In this document: positions 7,799 through 63,632 of the stretch, piece after piece
Layout: each line of letters starts with the position of its first letter
How positions within the stretch are numbered: the stretch's first letter is position 1
Source of the DNA: a virus
DNA: 64,000 nt
Strand: one strand, 5' to 3'
Virus record (IMG/VR): IMGVR_UViG_3300019776_000213
Span: 1 to 64,000 of that record
Program-made: the position numbers and the translations under genes
The notes under the pieces: generated by a model
What the model was told of the DNA's origin: nothing
The model's database searches: none
What the model saw: the letters and a program-made list of their open reading frames with translations, nothing else

Positions 7799-8164
7799 AT
7801 GAAAACTCTTGAAGAAATGTTTCAATATGCTAAGACTATTGTGGACAATGATGAAAACGCTATTGTGATGTTTTTTGTTGATAATTATGAAATTATCAAG
7901 AGCATAAGCTCAGAACTCAGCAATGGTATAGAGTGTACTTACAAAAGTAAAGGAAGCTTGTATGTAAGAGTTAGTCCTAAGAGTATGGAAGAGTTCTGGC
8001 ACTATTTTTATGGGTTTAACATTACTCACTTATTTATAACAGGACTTCCATTGTCAAATGACCTTTATGCTGCATTGAAGAGTAGAATTAGGTCACACAA
8101 GAAGACTAAAGAACCTTTTGGGATTTATAATAGTTTTCATGTAGAGAGGTGGGAGGAGTATTGA
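7799..8164 (+). CDS. Hypothetical protein
   Basis: 121 residues. ATG 7799 is preferred over the in-frame TTG at 7796, with GAGGAAG upstream. Alpha/beta pattern, no motif recognised. Its TGA overlaps the first possible helicase start. Confidence 0.6.
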   Translation: MKTLEEMFQYAKTIVDNDENAIVMFFVDNYEIIKSISSELSNGIECTYKSKGSLYVRVSPKSMEEFWHYFYGFNITHLFITGLPLSNDLYAALKSRIRSHKKTKEPFGIYNSFHVERWEEY

Positions 8165-9813
8165 TGGGATATTGGAAATCAACTAAAGGAGAAGAAATGA
8201 GTTCAGAGAAGTTTGTTCCAAAAGAAACTATGAAGGATGTTGAAGGGTACGGTTATGCAGATATTCCTGACAGGGGAATAAGAAAAGAAACACTAGAACG
8301 CTTTGGTGTTAAAGTAGCCGTATCTACTGAGGATGGAAAAACACCAATTGCAGTATATTTTCCATCATACAATCAAAAGGGAAAGGTAACTGGCTACAAA
8401 GTACAAGACCTTACAAAAGACAAGAGTGAGAAGTTTCACTGGAGTGTTATTGGGAATGTTTCTATTCAAAACAAGTTATTTGCACAAGAGCAAAGTGAAG
8501 CCGTACAACGTAAAAGAAATACTTTGATTCTCACAGAGGGTGAGTGGGATGCAATCTCATGCTGGCAATCAATGACAGACCAAGTTAAAGGTACTAAGTT
8601 TGCAGGATTAGAGCCTTTTGTTTGTTCTATTCCTATGGGGACTGCTAATGCTGTAGAGGCAGTCCTACATAATCAAGACTTTGTACTATCGCATGAAAAT
8701 CTTAACATTTTCTTTGATGATGATTGTTGCACACCAGCAGAGAAACAAAAGAATATTATGAAAGGGCATGAAGCTCGTGAGGCTGTGGCTAATGCACTTA
8801 TTGGTTCTGGGATTACATTATTTACTACGACTACAGGAGGAGATTTTAAAGATGCATCAGACATGGTTCAAGCCAATAAAGCCGATGAACTGGCAAAGTT
8901 AGTACAATTTGGCAAGAGGGCTTTTAGTGCTGAGAAGATTGTTCATGCTGCCGATATCACTTTTGAAGAACTTATTCAGGAGCGGGAAGAAGGGTTATAT
9001 GTAGATTGTTTCCCGAAACTGATGGATAAAATTCACGGATTTCGCAAACGTGAATTAGTGCTACTCACATCTCCTAGTGGAGTTGGGAAGAGTACCGTGA
9101 CCAGTATTTTTGCTAGTGCTTTTATGAAAGCTGGAGAGAAAGTTGGCATGATTTATCTTGAGGAGACAAACAAAGAAACCCTTCAACGGATGGTTGCAGC
9201 AAAGCTTAAAGTAAACTACAACAGATTTAAGAACAAGCCATTATCCTGTGGAAAGAGCCGCGAAGAAGTACAACAAGCATATGATGAAATTGTAAATAAC
9301 GACCAACTTATTATGTTGGGGCATTTTGGTAGCTTACCTATCACAGAACTCATGAGTAAAGTGCGACACATGCATTTAGTAGAAGGATGTTCTTATATTG
9401 TGCTAGATCACTTATCAGTAGTTATATCTGGCTCAGATATTGCAAATGAGCGTAAAGAGCTTGACATGGTAATGACAGAGTTAGCAGCCTTTTGTGCAGC
9501 AAATGATGTTTGTATTATTGCTGTTTCTCATATCAAACGCCTTGACGGTCAAGATTATAAACCACCAAAAGGCAAAGAAAATGAGCCTTTTTGGATTAAG
9601 GTTACTAAAGAATCAATGCGAGGAAGCGCAGCTCTTGAACAACTGTCATTTGTTATCATTGGATTAGAACCTCAAATTCGCCCGGATAGACAGCGAGGGC
9701 TTGTGCGACTGACTTGTCTCAAAAACAGACCTTGGAGCTATTTGGGAGATTGTGATGAGTTCTCGGTTGATGAAGATACTTGGGAAGTAATATTGAATGC
9801 AGTTTCTTTCTAA
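8164..9813 (+). CDS. T7 gp4-type replicative helicase, lacking the primase zinc domain
   Basis: 549 residues from ATG 8164; a second start at 8197 (538 residues) has its own AAGGAG. Each start has a strong ribosome site, so two products are possible. A TOPRIM-like fold shows 'LTEGEWDA' and 'IFFDDD'. The RecA/DnaB-like motor shows Walker A 'SPSGVGKST', Walker B 'YIVLDHLSVV', 'VSHIKR' and the 'RGSAALEQLS' finger. T7 gp4 begins with a zinc-binding domain of about 60 residues; here there is none, as in T7 gp4B. It unwinds DNA ahead of the polymerase at 11059. Whether it can prime is doubtful. Confidence 0.88.
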   Translation: MGYWKSTKGEEMSSEKFVPKETMKDVEGYGYADIPDRGIRKETLERFGVKVAVSTEDGKTPIAVYFPSYNQKGKVTGYKVQDLTKDKSEKFHWSVIGNVSIQNKLFAQEQSEAVQRKRNTLILTEGEWDAISCWQSMTDQVKGTKFAGLEPFVCSIPMGTANAVEAVLHNQDFVLSHENLNIFFDDDCCTPAEKQKNIMKGHEAREAVANALIGSGITLFTTTTGGDFKDASDMVQANKADELAKLVQFGKRAFSAEKIVHAADITFEELIQEREEGLYVDCFPKLMDKIHGFRKRELVLLTSPSGVGKSTVTSIFASAFMKAGEKVGMIYLEETNKETLQRMVAAKLKVNYNRFKNKPLSCGKSREEVQQAYDEIVNNDQLIMLGHFGSLPITELMSKVRHMHLVEGCSYIVLDHLSVVISGSDIANERKELDMVMTELAAFCAANDVCIIAVSHIKRLDGQDYKPPKGKENEPFWIKVTKESMRGSAALEQLSFVIIGLEPQIRPDRQRGLVRLTCLKNRPWSYLGDCDEFSVDEDTWEVILNAVSF

Positions 9814-11058: not shown

Positions 11059-13161
11059 ATGGAATTGCACGGATACTGCTATGATATTGAAGCTGATAAT
11101 CTGTACCTAGAATCATCAAAAATTTGGTATATGAAATTCAAGTCATTGGATGGTTCACGTTCAATGTCCATATACCCATTCAGAGAAACTATTGATGAAG
11201 TTAAATTAAAGTTTTATGAATGGAATAATTCTTTTGATGACGGGTGCTTTGTCGTTGGGCATAATATTCTTGGATACGATAATTGGATGTTATGGAAATT
11301 CTTTGACTTAAATTTTAAAGTAGGTAAAGATTACTTTGGTGGAAAGCCAGTGCAGTTCATTGACACACTTTATTTAAGCATGTTTATTGCACCAGATAAT
11401 CCATCTCATTCACTGGCATACTTGTCTGGTGGAACTGAGACTGAAAAGATCAATTATCGTCAAGGACTCATCGACTTAGGATTACTTGAGAAAACTTCTC
11501 CTAAAGGTGCGGAGTTTAAATTTTTCCATGATTCTATGGTTCCATACTGTGATCAAGACGTTGATGCTAATATTTCAGTATTCAAACGTTTAGTATCGCA
11601 AATGAAAGAGTTATATGGTGCAGAATGGGTTGTACCCTCTCTCCGACTAGGGCAAAAGAGTTTCTATCTGATGAACGCACAAGCATTTACTGGAGTAGCT
11701 TTTGATATTGAAAAGGCTAAATCATTACATACTGATATTGTGAAACGTGTAGAAGAAATCCGTGCTGAAGTAATGCCATTACTCCCTCTTCGTCCATTAA
11801 AGAAAGGTGAAGAGAAAGAATACACCATGCCAAAGAACCCTTATAAAAAGAATGGGGAATTTAGTAGTCACATGGTGAATTTTATAGAGAAGCATAATGG
11901 CATTAAAAACGATGATGGAACAGTTTCATTTTATGGTAAAGATTATTCCATTGTAGGTGGAGCATTGTTAGATATAAAACTTCCTATGGAATTAAAAGAC
12001 CAAGCTGAGTTTAAAGACTTCTTAATATCAGAAGGCTGGGTTCCAACAATGCACAACGTCCAGAAAGATGCTAATGGTAAAGCTGTGCGTGATCCTGTGA
12101 CTAAGCAGTTAATACTAACAAGTCCAAAATTACAAGAACAAGGAAAACTTTGTCCTAACTTGGAAGCAATGGATAATCCAATTATTAAGAAAGTAGTAAT
12201 GTATTTGAGTTTGAGAAATCGACAAGGTACATTAGAAGGTTGGCTAGAAAATCCAAGATTGCTGTGGGATGGTAGATTGAGTGCATCTGCCAGTGGTATT
12301 ACATCTACACATCGCCAGCGTCATGTCTGCGTGTGTAACGTACCTAAAGTTGGAAGTTTATTAGGTGAAGAAATGCGATCACTCTTCAAAGCTGAAGACG
12401 GTATGGCATTTGTGGGAGGGGACAGTGCAGCCCTTGAAAATAGGGTTACTGCAAGCTATACGTTCGATTATGACAATGGTAAGTATGCTGACATTATTCT
12501 CAATGGGGATAGTCATAGTTACAATGCAGTAGCATTCTTCCCAGAAGAAACTAAAGGGTTTGATCCATCATCACCAGACCATGATAAAGATCATCCAAAC
12601 TTTAAGAAATGGCGTGGCAAAGCGAAGAATGGGTTGTATTGTCTACTTTATGGAGGACAAGCCCCAAAACTTGCCCAAACTCTTGGGATACCAGCTAGTA
12701 AAGGGAAACAAGCTTTTGAAGCTTTCTGGAATGCAAATCCTGCCTTGAGGGATTTCAGGGATGCTGTCACTAATTATTGGAAGACAGTTGGAAAATCTAA
12801 GTATCTTCCTGCTATTGATGGGAGGTTGTTAGTGACTCGATCACCACACAGTCTAGTGAACCAGCTTTGCCAGAGTGCTGGGGCAATTGCTACAGATTTA
12901 GCTTTGGTGTTTTTTGATAGTGCTATGGGAGGGATTAAACTTGATGATAAGTTTAGACCATACTATAAGTATAAAGGGTGTATTGTAAAACGCACACTCT
13001 ATCAACACGACGAAGGGCAGTTTGAATGTTCTCCAGAGATTACTGAAGAAGTGGGAAAAGTATTTGTTGAATGCATTAGAAAAGCTGGAGATTATTTAAA
13101 AATGAAAGTAGCACTTGACGGGGAATACAAGATTGATGTAAACTGGATGGGGACACATTAA
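11059..13161 (+). CDS. DNA polymerase, family A, T7 type with 3'-5' exonuclease
   Basis: 700 residues, close to the 704 of T7 gp5. Exonuclease motifs: 'YDIEADNL' (Exo I), 'VGHNILGYDNW' (Exo II), 'YCDQDVDANISV' (Exo III). Polymerase motifs: A 'VGGDSAALENR', B 'RGKAKNGLYCLLYGG' and C 'YQHDEGQF'. The C-terminus 'NWMGTH' matches the conserved NWxxxH end of T7-like enzymes, so the protein is complete. It copies the phage genome with the gp4-like helicase, SSB and exonuclease in the same region. A homing nuclease gene follows directly. Confidence 0.95.
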   Translation: MELHGYCYDIEADNLYLESSKIWYMKFKSLDGSRSMSIYPFRETIDEVKLKFYEWNNSFDDGCFVVGHNILGYDNWMLWKFFDLNFKVGKDYFGGKPVQFIDTLYLSMFIAPDNPSHSLAYLSGGTETEKINYRQGLIDLGLLEKTSPKGAEFKFFHDSMVPYCDQDVDANISVFKRLVSQMKELYGAEWVVPSLRLGQKSFYLMNAQAFTGVAFDIEKAKSLHTDIVKRVEEIRAEVMPLLPLRPLKKGEEKEYTMPKNPYKKNGEFSSHMVNFIEKHNGIKNDDGTVSFYGKDYSIVGGALLDIKLPMELKDQAEFKDFLISEGWVPTMHNVQKDANGKAVRDPVTKQLILTSPKLQEQGKLCPNLEAMDNPIIKKVVMYLSLRNRQGTLEGWLENPRLLWDGRLSASASGITSTHRQRHVCVCNVPKVGSLLGEEMRSLFKAEDGMAFVGGDSAALENRVTASYTFDYDNGKYADIILNGDSHSYNAVAFFPEETKGFDPSSPDHDKDHPNFKKWRGKAKNGLYCLLYGGQAPKLAQTLGIPASKGKQAFEAFWNANPALRDFRDAVTNYWKTVGKSKYLPAIDGRLLVTRSPHSLVNQLCQSAGAIATDLALVFFDSAMGGIKLDDKFRPYYKYKGCIVKRTLYQHDEGQFECSPEITEEVGKVFVECIRKAGDYLKMKVALDGEYKIDVNWMGTH

Positions 13162-50766: not shown

Positions 50767-52218
50767 TTAATAAACTGTTGGAATTGGAGAGGATTGTGAT
50801 AGGTTTGGTATGGCGAATGTGGGGATTGTATAAGATTTTAGCAGTGCTTTCATGGCCGACGCGCAGGAGTCCCATAAATCGTCCTTTTGCTTTCTGTTAC
50901 CATCAATGAAATTTTCAAGTTCTGTAAATAAAAACTCATTCCATTCAGGGTCAACCAATACTTTTACAAACCCTGCTTCAGCTAGAGTAAGGAACGGTTG
51001 CATCCTTTGTAATTTGCTCTTGGTTCCACCTGTCCTATCAACCCTTGCATCTACTCCTGCGTCTACTAGTGTCTTTAAGAAAAACATTGTTGCCGCTTTA
51101 GCTGCTACACCAACGTCCTCTGGTATATATACAGGGCAATTAATTCCCAAACCTTTATCTCTTTTATCTGTTTCAATAATAGTATCAAGAACACCATTTA
51201 TTAGTTTGCGATACTTTTCAGCGTGATGTATAATATAATAACCGTCTTTAGTTTTTGACATCATGACAGATGCAGTCCAGTCTGGGTCTGGATAAGCCTC
51301 AGAAGGTAAACTGCCTGCCAAGTCCATTGCCCTTACCGTACTTACTATGTTATCAGGTAATTCTGTAATCATCTCACACCAAGCTCGTTTAAAGTAGCCT
51401 TGTGTTTCTTGAATAGCGTGCCAGCTTCCTAAGAAAAGACGTTCTCGTTCAGTTCTTTTAAGATTTTGTAAACGGTTCAGGTATGCTGGCTGCTCACGGC
51501 ACAGCACAGGATTGTCAAGAATTGTCGCAGAGATATAAGTGTAGCTTTGAGCATGTATAGTGTCTCCATATAGTGTTTCAAGTTCCTCTTTTGAGTCTGC
51601 TGTTACAGTTTCGCCATTATACGTAGCATACCATCGTTCTTTTCCAGATAATTCAGGTCGTGGAATACCTGTATCCATGTCTAGGTATGCTTGTACAAAC
51701 TTATATAAGTAAGAAGTTCTTGATGGGTTAGCTGTGCAAATTAACTGATGTGGTGCTTTAGCTTTAGACCTGATACGTGATTCAAGGTATTTAATTTGCA
51801 CTTCACTATGCCATTGAGCTTCATCGAATATTACTAATGAGTATTGTCCACCGTCGAAGTTATTAATATCCCTGTCTGCACCACATACTTTAAACTGTAC
51901 TTGCGCGCCAGATGGAAAAGTTGCAGACATCGTAGGGTGAGACTTGAACTTAGCCCCATAATCCCTCCACATATCCTGAGCTTCCATGAACAGACCACCA
52001 GCTTGAGTAAGTTGTGTACTTGTCTCACGAATAAACACTGCCCTAAAAAAGGGGTCATTAACATATTTTAATATTAACATCAGTGCTTGGTGTGACTTGC
52101 CTGATCCAGCACCGCCGCCGAAGATGACGAAGTTAGACTTACAGTTTAAAAACATCTTATGAGCTTCTGAGGAAGGAGCTAATACCTTCCTCTTATTCTC
52201 TTTAACCTCTTTACTCAT
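50767..52218 (-). CDS. terL: Terminase large subunit
   Basis: 483 residues. Walker A 'FGGGAGSGKSHQ', Walker B 'SLVIFDEAQW', coupling 'ICTANPSR', and a C-terminal nuclease domain starting 'VRAMDLAGSLPS'. It cuts and pumps the concatemer into proheads. It is separated from the TerS-like gene by 1.8 kb of unusual DNA. Confidence 0.93.
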   Translation of the reverse strand: MSKEVKENKRKVLAPSSEAHKMFLNCKSNFVIFGGGAGSGKSHQALMLILKYVNDPFFRAVFIRETSTQLTQAGGLFMEAQDMWRDYGAKFKSHPTMSATFPSGAQVQFKVCGADRDINNFDGGQYSLVIFDEAQWHSEVQIKYLESRIRSKAKAPHQLICTANPSRTSYLYKFVQAYLDMDTGIPRPELSGKERWYATYNGETVTADSKEELETLYGDTIHAQSYTYISATILDNPVLCREQPAYLNRLQNLKRTERERLFLGSWHAIQETQGYFKRAWCEMITELPDNIVSTVRAMDLAGSLPSEAYPDPDWTASVMMSKTKDGYYIIHHAEKYRKLINGVLDTIIETDKRDKGLGINCPVYIPEDVGVAAKAATMFFLKTLVDAGVDARVDRTGGTKSKLQRMQPFLTLAEAGFVKVLVDPEWNEFLFTELENFIDGNRKQKDDLWDSCASAMKALLKSYTIPTFAIPNLSQSSPIPTVY

Positions 52219-56666: not shown

Positions 56667-57425
56667 ATGACAAACAAAGAGAAATATGAAGGTGCACGAT
56701 TTGAAAGTAAATCTTATGGATGGTACACTGTTATTGAATATAATAACTCTATCGATATAACAGTTAAATTTGATACAGGCTTTATAAAGAAATGTGCGTT
56801 AAAAGAAATGTTATCTGGTGGTATTAAAGACCCAACTGTCCCAAATGTTTATGGAGTTGGGTTTATTGGAGCTGGTAAATATACTTCACAAATTGTTAGA
56901 GGAAACAATAATCCGTGTTATGACTCTTGGAAGGACATGTTAAAGAGGTGCTATTCAGAAGATACAAGATCAAGAAAGTATTACTTCGGATGTACTGTTG
57001 ACAATGAGTGGTTAAATTATCAGAACTTTGCAGAATGGTATTACTCTAATATTAAATGTAGTGGTAGAGTAGAAGTAGATAAAGACCTATTAATAAAAGG
57101 AAATAAAATATATTCAGCAAAGACATGTTCTCTGGTTCCACAACAAATCAATACATTATTCTCAGGAGCTGGTAAAAAGTACAGAGGTAAGTATCCTTTA
57201 GGGGTACATTTTAGTAAAGAACGCAAACAATTTGCTGCGAGACTGGAGAGAAGAGGAGAAGCAAAAACACATTTAGGGTGGTTCACTACTGCTGAGGATG
57301 CATTTCTGTGTTATAAACATCATAAAGAGATTCATGTAAAAGAAACTGCCAATAAGTTTAAGGATATGATATCTGAAGAAGTTTATGATGCTCTGATGAA
57401 ATATGAAGTTGACATAAATGACTAA
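56667..57425 (+). CDS. HNH/AP2-type homing endonuclease
   Basis: 252 residues starting one base after phoH, with GGGGGGAA in the phoH end as ribosome site. 'WKDMLKRCYSED', 'YFGCTVDNEWLNYQNFAEWY', 'EVDKDLLIKGNKIYSAKTCS' are shared with the 17294 nuclease. The C-terminus ('YPLGVHFSKERKQFAARLER') is an AP2 domain. Inserted between phoH and the ClpP-like gene. Confidence 0.8.
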   Translation: MTNKEKYEGARFESKSYGWYTVIEYNNSIDITVKFDTGFIKKCALKEMLSGGIKDPTVPNVYGVGFIGAGKYTSQIVRGNNNPCYDSWKDMLKRCYSEDTRSRKYYFGCTVDNEWLNYQNFAEWYYSNIKCSGRVEVDKDLLIKGNKIYSAKTCSLVPQQINTLFSGAGKKYRGKYPLGVHFSKERKQFAARLERRGEAKTHLGWFTTAEDAFLCYKHHKEIHVKETANKFKDMISEEVYDALMKYEVDIND

Positions 57426-57438
57426 GAGGGAGACCAAT

Positions 57439-58074
57439 ATGAAGAAATACCACTCCGATGAAGAAAACTTTAAAGATGAAAATCTATTTAAAGTTACTGC
57501 AAAGCCAATGACAACATTTTATGAGTGCAATATTGATGATGTTTTTGTTCACTCAAGTCAATTTGATGATATTGTCTATATACTTGAAAATGCAGTAGAT
57601 GGAGATATTATAAAGATGAACTTATCATCTGATGGTGGTTCATTGGTAGCAGTACTTCCTGTACTTGGTGCAATGGAGAAAACTAAAGCTCATGTACATT
57701 GTCATATTGTATCAGATATTGCTTCTGCTTGTACATTTCTACCAATGTATGCTGGTTCTGTAGATATCAATAACTACGTATCAGTAATGTTCCACAATGT
57801 TCACTATGTTACTGCTGGAACAGGTCATACAGTGAAAGATTATGTAGACTACACTGATAAAGCTACTTATAAACTTTTACATGATATGTATCACCACTTC
57901 TTTGATGAGGATGAAATAAGCAGAATTCTGCAAGGAAAGGAATACTGGATGGATTCTGAAGAGTTTATGCTTCGTTACGAAATGATGATGGATGAACGTG
58001 AGAAGGAAATGGCAGAGTTTATGGAGGCTATTTCTGGAAAAGATAAGCCAGATGATGTAGATAAGGAAGTCTAA
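57439..58074 (+). CDS. ClpP-like serine protease
   Basis: 211 residues from ATG 57439, 6 nt after AGGGAG; an earlier ATG at 57418 lacks a site. 'MNLSSDGGSLVAVLPVLGAM', 'SDIASACTFLPMYAGS' (nucleophile Ser) and 'FHNVHYVTAGTGH' follow the ClpP/crotonase fold. No other Clp parts are present; it could process a phage protein or act on host targets. Confidence 0.7.
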   Translation: MKKYHSDEENFKDENLFKVTAKPMTTFYECNIDDVFVHSSQFDDIVYILENAVDGDIIKMNLSSDGGSLVAVLPVLGAMEKTKAHVHCHIVSDIASACTFLPMYAGSVDINNYVSVMFHNVHYVTAGTGHTVKDYVDYTDKATYKLLHDMYHHFFDEDEISRILQGKEYWMDSEEFMLRYEMMMDEREKEMAEFMEAISGKDKPDDVDKEV

Positions 58075-61364: not shown

Positions 61365-61687
61365 TGTTATTAAGTAAAGAAACAGAGCAAGCTATTATTG
61401 ATAGCTTTAAAGACTTAGACCGTTGGGAGCTTGTTAAAGGATATGAAGCTAGGGACGGAGGGTCATTAGGTATAATGATGCGATATTGCTATTCTTCCTT
61501 ATGGAGGGATAAGATTACTGGAACTATTATGGAATTTGAATCAGATAAGCTTGTATTTATTGATACATTGGAAATAAAACTAGGTGATAGTAGTATTCCT
61601 CTATACGCAAAGTATATGATTGAAGGTAAAGATTACTTGAAATTACAAGCCGTTGTAGATTCTATCAATAAGAAGTGGAGTATTTAA
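61364..61687 (+). CDS. Small hypothetical protein, related family member 2
   Basis: 107 residues after AAGGAGAAG. Shares the N-terminal 'SFKDLDRW' helix with 59918 and 61687. One-base overlap with the next gene. Function unknown. Confidence 0.6.
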   Translation: MLLSKETEQAIIDSFKDLDRWELVKGYEARDGGSLGIMMRYCYSSLWRDKITGTIMEFESDKLVFIDTLEIKLGDSSIPLYAKYMIEGKDYLKLQAVVDSINKKWSI

Positions 61688-62010
61688 TGATAAAAGAATT
61701 ACAGCTGGGAGAAGGCCTAGAAGCTATCATTATTGAAAGTTTTAATGATATTAATAGATGGGATAATATATCTAGCTACGAATCAAAAACAAGGAAAGAT
61801 GTATTGTATGAGCCTTTCCATATGCTTTCTACTGTTTATGTTGACAGTGTTACAGGTTCTGTAATAGAGCTTCACCATAGTGGTGTTAAGGTGGATTATA
61901 TAAGTGCTAGTAAGAAGCTTTCAGATGCATTCCATGAGATGATAAATAAGAAATCTATTAGTAAGCAAGAAGAGTTACTTAAGAATTTAAAGAGTAAATG
62001 GAATGCTTAA
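61687..62010 (+). CDS. Small hypothetical protein, related family member 3
   Basis: 107 residues from ATG 61687, which overlaps the preceding TAA. Contains 'SFNDINRWDNI' and the same strand order as its neighbour. Last gene before the non-coding region. Confidence 0.6.
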   Translation: MIKELQLGEGLEAIIIESFNDINRWDNISSYESKTRKDVLYEPFHMLSTVYVDSVTGSVIELHHSGVKVDYISASKKLSDAFHEMINKKSISKQEELLKNLKSKWNA

Positions 62011-62023
62011 ATTTTAATCAAAT

Positions 62024-62658
62024 AGTGCTGTGGATAACTTTTATTATCTTCAGCTATTTGTAGTCATCTTCAAACCTACTAAAAGCCATTATAATGTTTC
62101 TTTAAAGAATCTTTCTAGGAAATATTATGGTGGCTTATTCTTTATTACTTCTTCAAAATTCTGTTCTGAATTTTATCTTATTTCATATCTGAAACATTCT
62201 ATTCTGTATTGATTTCAATACAGCTTATTAGGTGTTTCTGTCTCAAGATGGTAATATATAATTAATTTTAAGGTCATACTTAGTGCTGTATTTGTTGTAA
62301 GGATATTGACAAAATATCTTAAATATGAGTGCTAATCGAGCCACTTTGGTACTCAATATAATATCATAGTATTAACTATCATCAATTACTATTTCATAGC
62401 TATAATCTATTAAAATATTTCTTCTGAGTAATTTTATTGTAAATTTTAGTGCTGATAGCTGGCAAATATCTATGGTGAAAATACCAGATATTGTGAGTTT
62501 TATTTGCAGAATTTTATTATAAAAATTTTTAGATTGTGACTATGTTTGTTACTATTTGGAAATTATTTGGTTAGAATATCTATAGGATAATGTGCTAGAT
62601 TTAGCTATGAGAGTGCTCGTTTTAGACATTTTAAGTTTGCTATTTGTGTGGCAGTGCT
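62024..62658 (+). repeat. Dispersed AGTGCT repeat
   Basis: AGTGCT occurs at 62024, 62282, 62328, 62448, 62612 and 62653, all in one orientation, with a TGTGCT at 62592. Several extend to TTAGTGCTG. A random AT-rich stretch of this size should hold well under one. Confidence 0.5.
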
Positions 62659-63136
62659 GAGACGTATTGGTGGTTTAACAGGCACCGCCACCCTTCTTAT
62701 CAAAATAATTATAATTTCAAAATATCCTTTAAAATCAAATAGTTAGATATCCTTTAGCACGTAATAAACAAATGTTTTGTTCGTGTTAGACCTACTGCTG
62801 CCTTGATAGTCTCTCCCTATCGCTGGATAGAGCCTCACTAGAACGCTGTATAAGGCGTTGATACTCATCTGGCTACTACCCTATTACCTACCCTTAGAAC
62901 TCGTCTCCTAGAGCCTATACGCAAGCCGCATATGCAGAGTAATGGCATCTGGTAGCTATAAACTGCTACTATCCTGCCAGCGCATAGCAGAATGTTGCTC
63001 ACTCAATAACATTCATGATAGATAATTGCAATCGTGTTGCAGATAATGATAGATTCGCAGTGATAGGGATTCTCAGTTATGCGGGGAGGACCTCGATTGC
63101 CCTCTCGCATTATTATAAAGACTGCGTTTTATATTT

Positions 63137-63152
63137 TAGGTCACGTGACCTA
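63137..63152. repeat. Perfect 16-bp palindrome
   Basis: TAGGTCACGTGACCTA, centred on CACGTG, 52 bp before the DnaA-box array. A TTGCT/AGCAA hairpin follows at 63157. A likely dimeric-protein site or cruciform. Confidence 0.7.
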
Positions 63153-63203
63153 TTATTGCTAAGAAGCAATTTAACATCAAGGTAACCATGCAGGATGATA
63201 GAG

Positions 63204-63288
63204 TTATCCACAGGACACTATAAAGTTATCCACAGCTATCACATACTTATCCACAGATATTACTAAGTTATCCACATAGTTATGCACA
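63204..63288 (+). promoter_or_regulatory. DnaA-box array
   Basis: Perfect TTATCCACA at 63204, 63226, 63247 and 63268 plus TTATGCACA at 63280. Start-to-start spacing is 22, 21, 21 and 12 bp, so the perfect boxes lie on one helix face. Another perfect box, inverted, is at 62029-62037. This is the consensus strong DnaA box. Confidence 0.85.
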
Positions 63289-63584
63289 GGCTACAACATA
63301 ACATACCTGACAGGATACCTTGTCGGTGTCACTGCTATACTCACTTATACATTGCTATACTTTGATATACATCTGTACATATGACATGATAACACAATGC
63401 CTCGTATAAGCCTTTAAATACCCTTTACAGAAGACTTACACCATGCTGCTATGATTCCCTAGCCTATGCTATTTAAATTGATTATAGGCTGTTCTGACAA
63501 GCCATATGATTGATATCCACCGTCATACTAAATGAATTGCATAGATGACTGGAACATTGAGAGATATGCTAAAGCATAAAAGAA

Positions 63585-63610
63585 AAGCCCACCGATTAGG
63601 GCAGGCTTTA
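63585..63610 (-). terminator. Terminator after the last leftward gene
   Basis: AAAGCC (63585-63590) and GGCTTT (63605-63610) with inner CCC/GGG options. Read leftward it ends in GGGCTTTTCTTTT, suited to the gene at 63633. Confidence 0.65.
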
Positions 63611-63632
63611 TTATGAAGATTGTAGGACTGAA

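What the first reader, a model, noticed from the sequence alone, without database searches (positions are those of the whole stretch)
63137..63288. Host-type DnaA-box origin in a phage with a T7-like replisome
Four perfect TTATCCACA boxes at 21-22 bp spacing plus a near-perfect fifth, next to a 16-bp palindrome and an AT-rich non-coding stretch. T7-type phages normally start from phage RNA polymerase promoters. This suggests DnaA is recruited to load a T7-like polymerase/helicase, or is titrated away from the host origin.
Basis: partly seen in the sequence, partly recalled or inferred. Interest (0 to 1): 0.7.

Follow-up and report, generated by a model that had tools for sequence, protein, structure and literature searches.

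The report
DnaA-box array at phage genome-end junction
This virus of bacteria carries a tidy row of binding sites for its host's replication-starting protein DnaA, and gene order puts the row where related viruses have the ends of their packaged DNA, so it is more likely tied to the genome ends than a simple copy of the host's replication origin.

Summary
Four exact TTATCCACA boxes (63204, 63226, 63247, 63268) and TTATGCACA (63280) lie on one strand at 22/21/21/12-bp steps; chance expectation is about 3e-12. They sit in the longest ORF-free stretch of the 79,766-bp record (62011-63632), between two gene blocks that converge on it.

The reading "host-type origin in a T7-type phage" is only partly supported. 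The replisome is T7-like, but the phage is related to Pseudomonas phages M1, PaP1 and PseuGes_254, and no T7-type RNA polymerase was found. GC skew changes in the terminus-like sense, following gene strand. No easily melted DNA adjoins the boxes; the AT-rich block is 450-950 bp away.

Gene order puts the gap where PaP1 (1190 bp) and PseuGes_254 (628 bp) have experimentally or PhageTerm-mapped terminal repeats. A relative (L309) keeps two exact boxes in the same gap. Exact terminal repeats of T7-like phages A7 (177 bp) and ZK1 (292 bp) hold DnaA-box arrays, conserved above their surroundings across seven aligned relatives.

Best reading: a host-DnaA-binding array at the genome-end/concatemer junction. 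What DnaA does there (terminal-repeat duplication or processing, initiation, titration, entry) is inferred.

The parts
63204..63212 (+). DnaA box 1, TTATCCACA
   Evidence: exact match
63226..63234 (+). DnaA box 2, TTATCCACA
   Evidence: exact match
63247..63255 (+). DnaA box 3, TTATCCACA
   Evidence: exact match
63268..63276 (+). DnaA box 4, TTATCCACA; with box 5 it matches the box pair of relative L309 (same TAG linker, 12-bp step)
63280..63288 (+). DnaA box 5, TTATGCACA (one mismatch); the aligned L309 box is exact
62011..63632 (.). Convergent non-coding gap, longest ORF-free stretch of the record; proposed terminal-repeat / concatemer-junction region by synteny with PaP1 and PseuGes_254
   Evidence: PMC3652863, PMC11512268
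63137..63152 (.). 16-bp perfect palindrome TAGGTCACGTGACCTA, role unknown
63584..63609 (-). Terminator-like hairpin ending the right-hand (- strand) gene block
62029..62037 (-). Single exact DnaA box in reverse orientation at the left edge of the gap (15-nt perfect inverted match with box 2 and its flanks)
62024..62658 (+). AT-rich half of the gap with six AGTGCT motifs (62024, 62282, 62328, 62448, 62612, 62653)
8149..9813 (+). T7-type primase-helicase (phrog_239; DnaB_C)
11059..13161 (+). Family-A DNA polymerase; closest named relative phage M1, 46.8% identity

Best explanation
The element is an array of binding sites for the host's DnaA protein, placed in the phage's genome-end region: the terminal repeat, which is the junction between units in replicating concatemers. 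Shown: the array, its phasing and orientation, its place between two converging gene blocks, synteny of that place with two mapped terminal repeats, a conserved box pair in a relative's syntenic gap, and DnaA-box arrays filling exact terminal repeats of T7-like phages. Inferred: that this phage's own repeat lies here, that host DnaA binds, and what follows. Proposed mechanism: DnaA-ATP binds the same-facing boxes cooperatively as a directional oligomer at the junction, and locally opens DNA or halts polymerases there. That would help copy the terminal repeat a second time, which every packaged genome needs because a concatemer junction holds it once, and help process the junction for packaging.
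For: Array and chance value. PaP1's ends were mapped experimentally, 1190 bp (PMC3652863); PseuGes_254's by PhageTerm, 628 bp (PMC11512268), confirmed as an exact repeat. Both lie where the right-end gene block and the left-end block converge, as here: ClpP-like 57418-58074 and PhoH on the left, small - strand genes on the right. Relative L309 (PhoH 52%) has a 1799-bp convergent gap with two exact boxes, 83% identity over 48 bp to ours, E 2.6e-8, the only box pair in its 82-kb record. A7's 177-bp exact terminal repeat holds 4 exact boxes and ZK1's 292-bp repeat holds 6. Across seven Molineuxvirinae-type sequences aligned to the ZK1 repeat, box positions are 85% conserved against 67% outside, p 8e-6. 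T5's annotated injection-stop region within its terminal repeat has one exact and three near boxes. PseuGes_254's repeat carries its own short-motif arrays. The array lies downstream of both converging gene blocks, not at a gene start.
Against: The physical ends of this phage are not known; the record is linear with no end repeats and no reads were available. The terminal repeats of PaP1 and PseuGes_254, the equivalent gaps of M1 and Barba6A, and the fetched L307 and L308 stretches lack box clusters, so the array is not required for this kind of end. Boxes in L309 face the other way relative to its flanks. In IMG/VR, arrays are not generally near contig ends (13 of 81 within 300 bp, 6.8 expected; overall distribution not distinguishable from uniform) and many lie between diverging genes, so arrays are not confined to ends. 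No step of the proposed mechanism was tested.
Confidence: 0.45

Rival explanations
1. A true DnaA-dependent replication origin: host DnaA binds the array, melts nearby DNA and lets the phage primase-helicase load and start synthesis, perhaps helped by the phage's O-like/DnaD-like HTH protein.
For: Five same-facing boxes in helical phase; O-like/DnaD-like protein at 65858-66328, 2.6 kb away (phrog_391 9e-12, HTH_36 41.8 bits); no phage RNA polymerase found to prime origins; Lactococcus phage 949 has seven exact boxes in a roughly 1-kb non-coding stretch. It could coexist with a terminal location.
Against: No destabilised DNA next to the boxes; skew sign is that of a terminus; no DnaA or DnaC-type homologue found; T7-type helicases do not need the DnaB loading that DnaA provides (general knowledge); the O-like gene and the boxes do not travel together in relatives; PseuGes_254's authors predict its origin elsewhere, at the diverging-gene site (PMC11512268).
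Confidence: 0.3
2. A DnaA sink: boxes multiplied by phage replication titrate DnaA and stop new rounds of host replication.
For: Same-facing, mostly perfect boxes; such arrays occur in many unrelated phages; datA-like titration is known in E. coli (general knowledge).
Against: Five boxes per genome matter only at high copy number, late in infection; the fixed position at the genome-end junction and conservation of boxes within terminal repeats would not be needed.
Confidence: 0.12
3. A genome-entry or end-holding signal, as proposed for T5's injection stop: DnaA or structured DNA holds or pulls the first-entering end.
For: T5's injection-stop region combines repeats, palindromes and DnaA boxes (PMC13250531); here a perfect palindrome and a small hairpin lie just left of the boxes.
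Against: No two-step DNA entry is known to me for PaP1-like phages; T5's boxes are fewer and weaker; A1/A2-like genes were not sought.
Confidence: 0.06
4. Chance cluster or an accidental tandem repeat without function.
For: Most relatives examined at the equivalent gap lack boxes.
Against: Expectation about 3e-12; linkers between boxes differ, so not a recent duplication; a box pair is conserved in L309.
Confidence: 0.02

Closest known systems
DnaA-box arrays in exact terminal repeats of T7-like phages (Shigella phage A7, Klebsiella phage ZK1 and relatives)
   Same: Several same-facing boxes, mostly at about 11- and 21-22-bp steps, in non-coding DNA
   Different: Those ends are exact repeats in the deposited records; here the terminal repeat is inferred from synteny. 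A7 has a T7-type RNA polymerase; this phage appears not to. Similarity was found only across the box array itself.
T5 injection-stop signal in the left terminal repeat
   Same: DnaA boxes with palindromes in non-coding DNA of a terminal repeat
   Different: T5 has one exact and three near boxes there, a 10-kb repeat with pre-early genes, and two-step entry
Terminal repeats of PaP1 (1190 bp) and PseuGes_254 (628 bp)
   Same: Same place in the gene order: the junction where the small-gene block and the opposite block (ClpP, ligase in PaP1) converge
   Different: No DnaA boxes; PseuGes_254's repeat carries ATTGTGTA and CATCATG motifs instead
Bacterial oriC (E. coli type)
   Same: Multiple R-type DnaA boxes in non-coding DNA
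   Different: No adjacent AT-rich melting element; boxes all one way; helicase is phage-encoded and T7-type

Membership tests
oriC-type DnaA-dependent origin | Cluster of DnaA boxes | tested here: met
oriC-type DnaA-dependent origin | Adjacent easily melted AT-rich element | tested here: not met
   Windows beside the array are of ordinary stability (about 25th-80th percentile); extremes lie 450-950 bp away. DnaA-trio elements were not tested.
oriC-type DnaA-dependent origin | GC-skew shift from - to + at the site | tested here: not met
   Shift is + to -, confounded by gene strand
oriC-type DnaA-dependent origin | Replication starts there in a DnaA-dependent way | not testable with these tools
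   Needs infection experiments
Phage direct terminal repeat / concatemer junction of the PaP1/PseuGes_254 kind | Position between converging blocks at the mapped ends of relatives | tested here: met
   PMC3652863, PMC11512268
Phage direct terminal repeat / concatemer junction of the PaP1/PseuGes_254 kind | Sequence present at both physical ends of virion DNA | not testable with these tools
   Record is a linear metagenome contig without end repeats; no reads
Phage direct terminal repeat / concatemer junction of the PaP1/PseuGes_254 kind | Short-motif arrays in the repeat (a possible shared trait rather than a strict definition) | tested here: inconclusive
   Present here, in PseuGes_254 and in the Barba6A gap; weak or absent in the M1, L307 and L308 gaps and the PaP1 end
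T7-like phage (Autographiviridae) | Single-subunit phage RNA polymerase | tested here: not met
   PF00940: no match here, A7 positive control 4e-111; the record may be incomplete
T7-like replisome | Primase-helicase and family-A polymerase | tested here: met
DnaA-titration site (datA-like) | Reduces free DnaA and host initiation | not testable with these tools
   Needs experiment

The most novel reading that the evidence does not exclude
Unrelated tailed phages with fixed genome ends have independently recruited host DnaA to their terminal repeats, as a general device for copying or processing the concatemer junction, the place where T7 has its CCTAAAG repeats and T5 its injection-stop signal; DnaA would then be a host factor for genome-end biology, not only for origins.
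Probability: 0.2. Interest if true: 0.8.

Novelty: new variant of a known kind. Interest (0 to 1): 0.55.

Why it matters
DnaA is regarded mainly as the protein that starts chromosome replication and regulates some genes. Arrays of its sites in the exact terminal repeats of T7-like phages, in T5's terminal repeat and at the equivalent junction here suggest that host DnaA has a role at phage genome ends. How a concatemer junction that holds the terminal repeat once yields two copies per virion is a long-standing question, and these arrays give it a concrete host factor to test in laboratory phages such as ZK1, A7 or T5. Full-text searches (10 in all, open-licence papers only) found no description of DnaA boxes in Autographiviridae terminal repeats.

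Tried and rejected
Relatives through neighbouring proteins: 63633-64166 and 61675-62010 gave no relatives; the 56667-57425 protein gave only distant ones at about 40%, without box clusters; the primase-helicase gave none in genome contigs. Long array-bearing contigs as relatives: one weak terminase match and one primase-helicase match among 25, so unrelated phages. Arrays as a general contig-end feature: only a mild excess within 300 bp of ends, no overall trend, so an all-arrays-are-ends claim was rejected. Co-occurrence of array and HTH_36 initiator: 5 of 25 other records, no clear link. Structured RNA in the gap: no Rfam match. Homology of the gap to M1 or PaP1: none beyond noise. Homologues of the O-like protein in named phages and plasmids: none at 1e-5. 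An initial RNA-polymerase absence test had no positive control and was repeated with A7.

Full report
What is there. The window is 1-64000 of a 79,766-bp virus record. Four exact TTATCCACA boxes start at 63204, 63226, 63247 and 63268, and TTATGCACA at 63280, all on the + strand. A first-order model expects 0.6 exact boxes in 64 kb and about 3e-12 clusters of four. The linkers differ, so this is not a recent duplication. A perfect 16-bp palindrome lies at 63137-63152. The boxes sit in 62011-63632, the longest ORF-free stretch of the record. Genes to its left are on +, genes to its right on -, so transcription converges on it. A terminator-like hairpin at 63584-63609 ends the right-hand block.

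What phage this is. The primase-helicase is phrog_239 and the polymerase family A; ligase, 5'-3' exonuclease-like protein, ribonucleotide reductase and ThyX are also encoded. Best matches are Pseudomonas phage M1 (Ounavirinae; helicase 70.5%, polymerase 46.8%), PaP1-like phages (terminase about 38%) and three unnamed contigs with PhoH 52-62% identical. A T7-type RNA polymerase was not found, while the same profile found A7's at 4e-111. The premise that phage promoters should drive replication here therefore does not hold.

Is it an oriC copy? Against: DNA next to the boxes is of ordinary stability, and the easily melted block is 450-950 bp away; the skew changes from + to -, the wrong sense for an origin, though gene strand explains it; no DnaA or DnaC-type homologue was found. 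For: an O-like/DnaD-like HTH protein is encoded at 65858-66328. That gene and the boxes do not co-occur in relatives: L307's record has a weak homologue and no box pair, L309's record has the box pair and no HTH_36 match.

Where it is in the gene order. PaP1's 1190-bp terminal repeat was mapped by run-off sequencing (PMC3652863). PseuGes_254's 628-bp repeat was found by PhageTerm (PMC11512268) and is exact in the record. In both, small genes run rightward to the right end and the left block (PaP1: ClpP and ligase) runs leftward to the left end. M1, PseuGes_254 and this phage share an inversion of the replisome block relative to PaP1, which leaves the junction in place. By this synteny the gap 62011-63632 is the terminal-repeat junction. 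This is inference: the phage's own ends are unknown.

Conservation. L309 (from an 82,011-bp record) has a 1799-bp convergent gap with two exact boxes 12 bp apart; 48 bp align to ours at 83%, E 2.6e-8, including the TAG linker. They are the only box pair in that record. M1, PseuGes_254, Barba6A and the records of L307 and L308 have no box pair; PaP1 has a single exact box, not at its ends.

The wider pattern. Neighbouring boxes face the same way in 826 of 880 pairs and favour 11-12 and 21-22 bp (the second scan selected for 21-22). Most are intergenic, more often between diverging than converging genes, and they are not generally at contig ends. In two named phages with exact terminal repeats, however, arrays lie inside the repeat: A7 (177 bp, 4 exact boxes) and ZK1 (292 bp, 6 exact boxes). 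About 20 Klebsiella/Proteus relatives match most of the ZK1 repeat. In seven sequences aligned, box positions are more conserved than the rest (0.85 against 0.67, p 8e-6). T5's annotated injection-stop region has one exact and three near boxes, and a 2026 paper mentions DnaA boxes there (PMC13250531). PseuGes_254's repeat has its own motif arrays, ATTGTGTA and CATCATG. Short-motif arrays may thus be usual in such repeats, with DnaA boxes one version.

Mechanism. Shown: array, context, synteny, conservation in one relative and in T7-like terminal repeats. Inferred: host DnaA binds cooperatively, and the complex acts at the concatemer junction, most likely by local opening or by halting polymerases, to help copy the terminal repeat and process the junction. 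A true origin is the main rival and need not exclude a terminal place. Titration and entry control are less likely. Confidence is 0.45 for the best reading and 0.3 for the origin.

Noticed in passing
L005:1-177 (Shigella phage A7) and L006:1-292 (Klebsiella phage ZK1): Exact direct terminal repeats of T7-like phages are filled with DnaA boxes; no paper describing this was found in the library searched.
   Followed up: partly
window 62024-62658: A second short motif, AGTGCT, occurs six times on + and never on - in the AT-rich half of the gap, against 35 on + in the whole record.
   Followed up: partly
L291:1-628: PseuGes_254's terminal repeat holds ATTGTGTA and CATCATG seven times each (both strands), against 4-5 copies of CATCATG/TTGTGTA in 25 kb outside it.
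   Followed up: partly
L304:5819-5985 (Pseudoalteromonas phage H101, record 51818-51984): Two pairs of exact DnaA boxes in a 780-bp non-coding gap between converging genes; H101's ends were not examined.
   Followed up: no
record 65858-66328 (L004:5858-6328, - strand): O-like/DnaD-like HTH protein of 156 aa; no match in named phages or plasmids at 1e-5.
   Followed up: partly
record 78011-78649 (L004:18011-18649, + strand): Serine recombinase of the invertase/resolvase type; a homologue lies near the PhoH gene in L307.
   Followed up: no
L045, L105, L124 (IMG/VR contigs): Very long DnaA-box arrays, up to 23 boxes in 0.5 kb, on other viral contigs.
   Followed up: no
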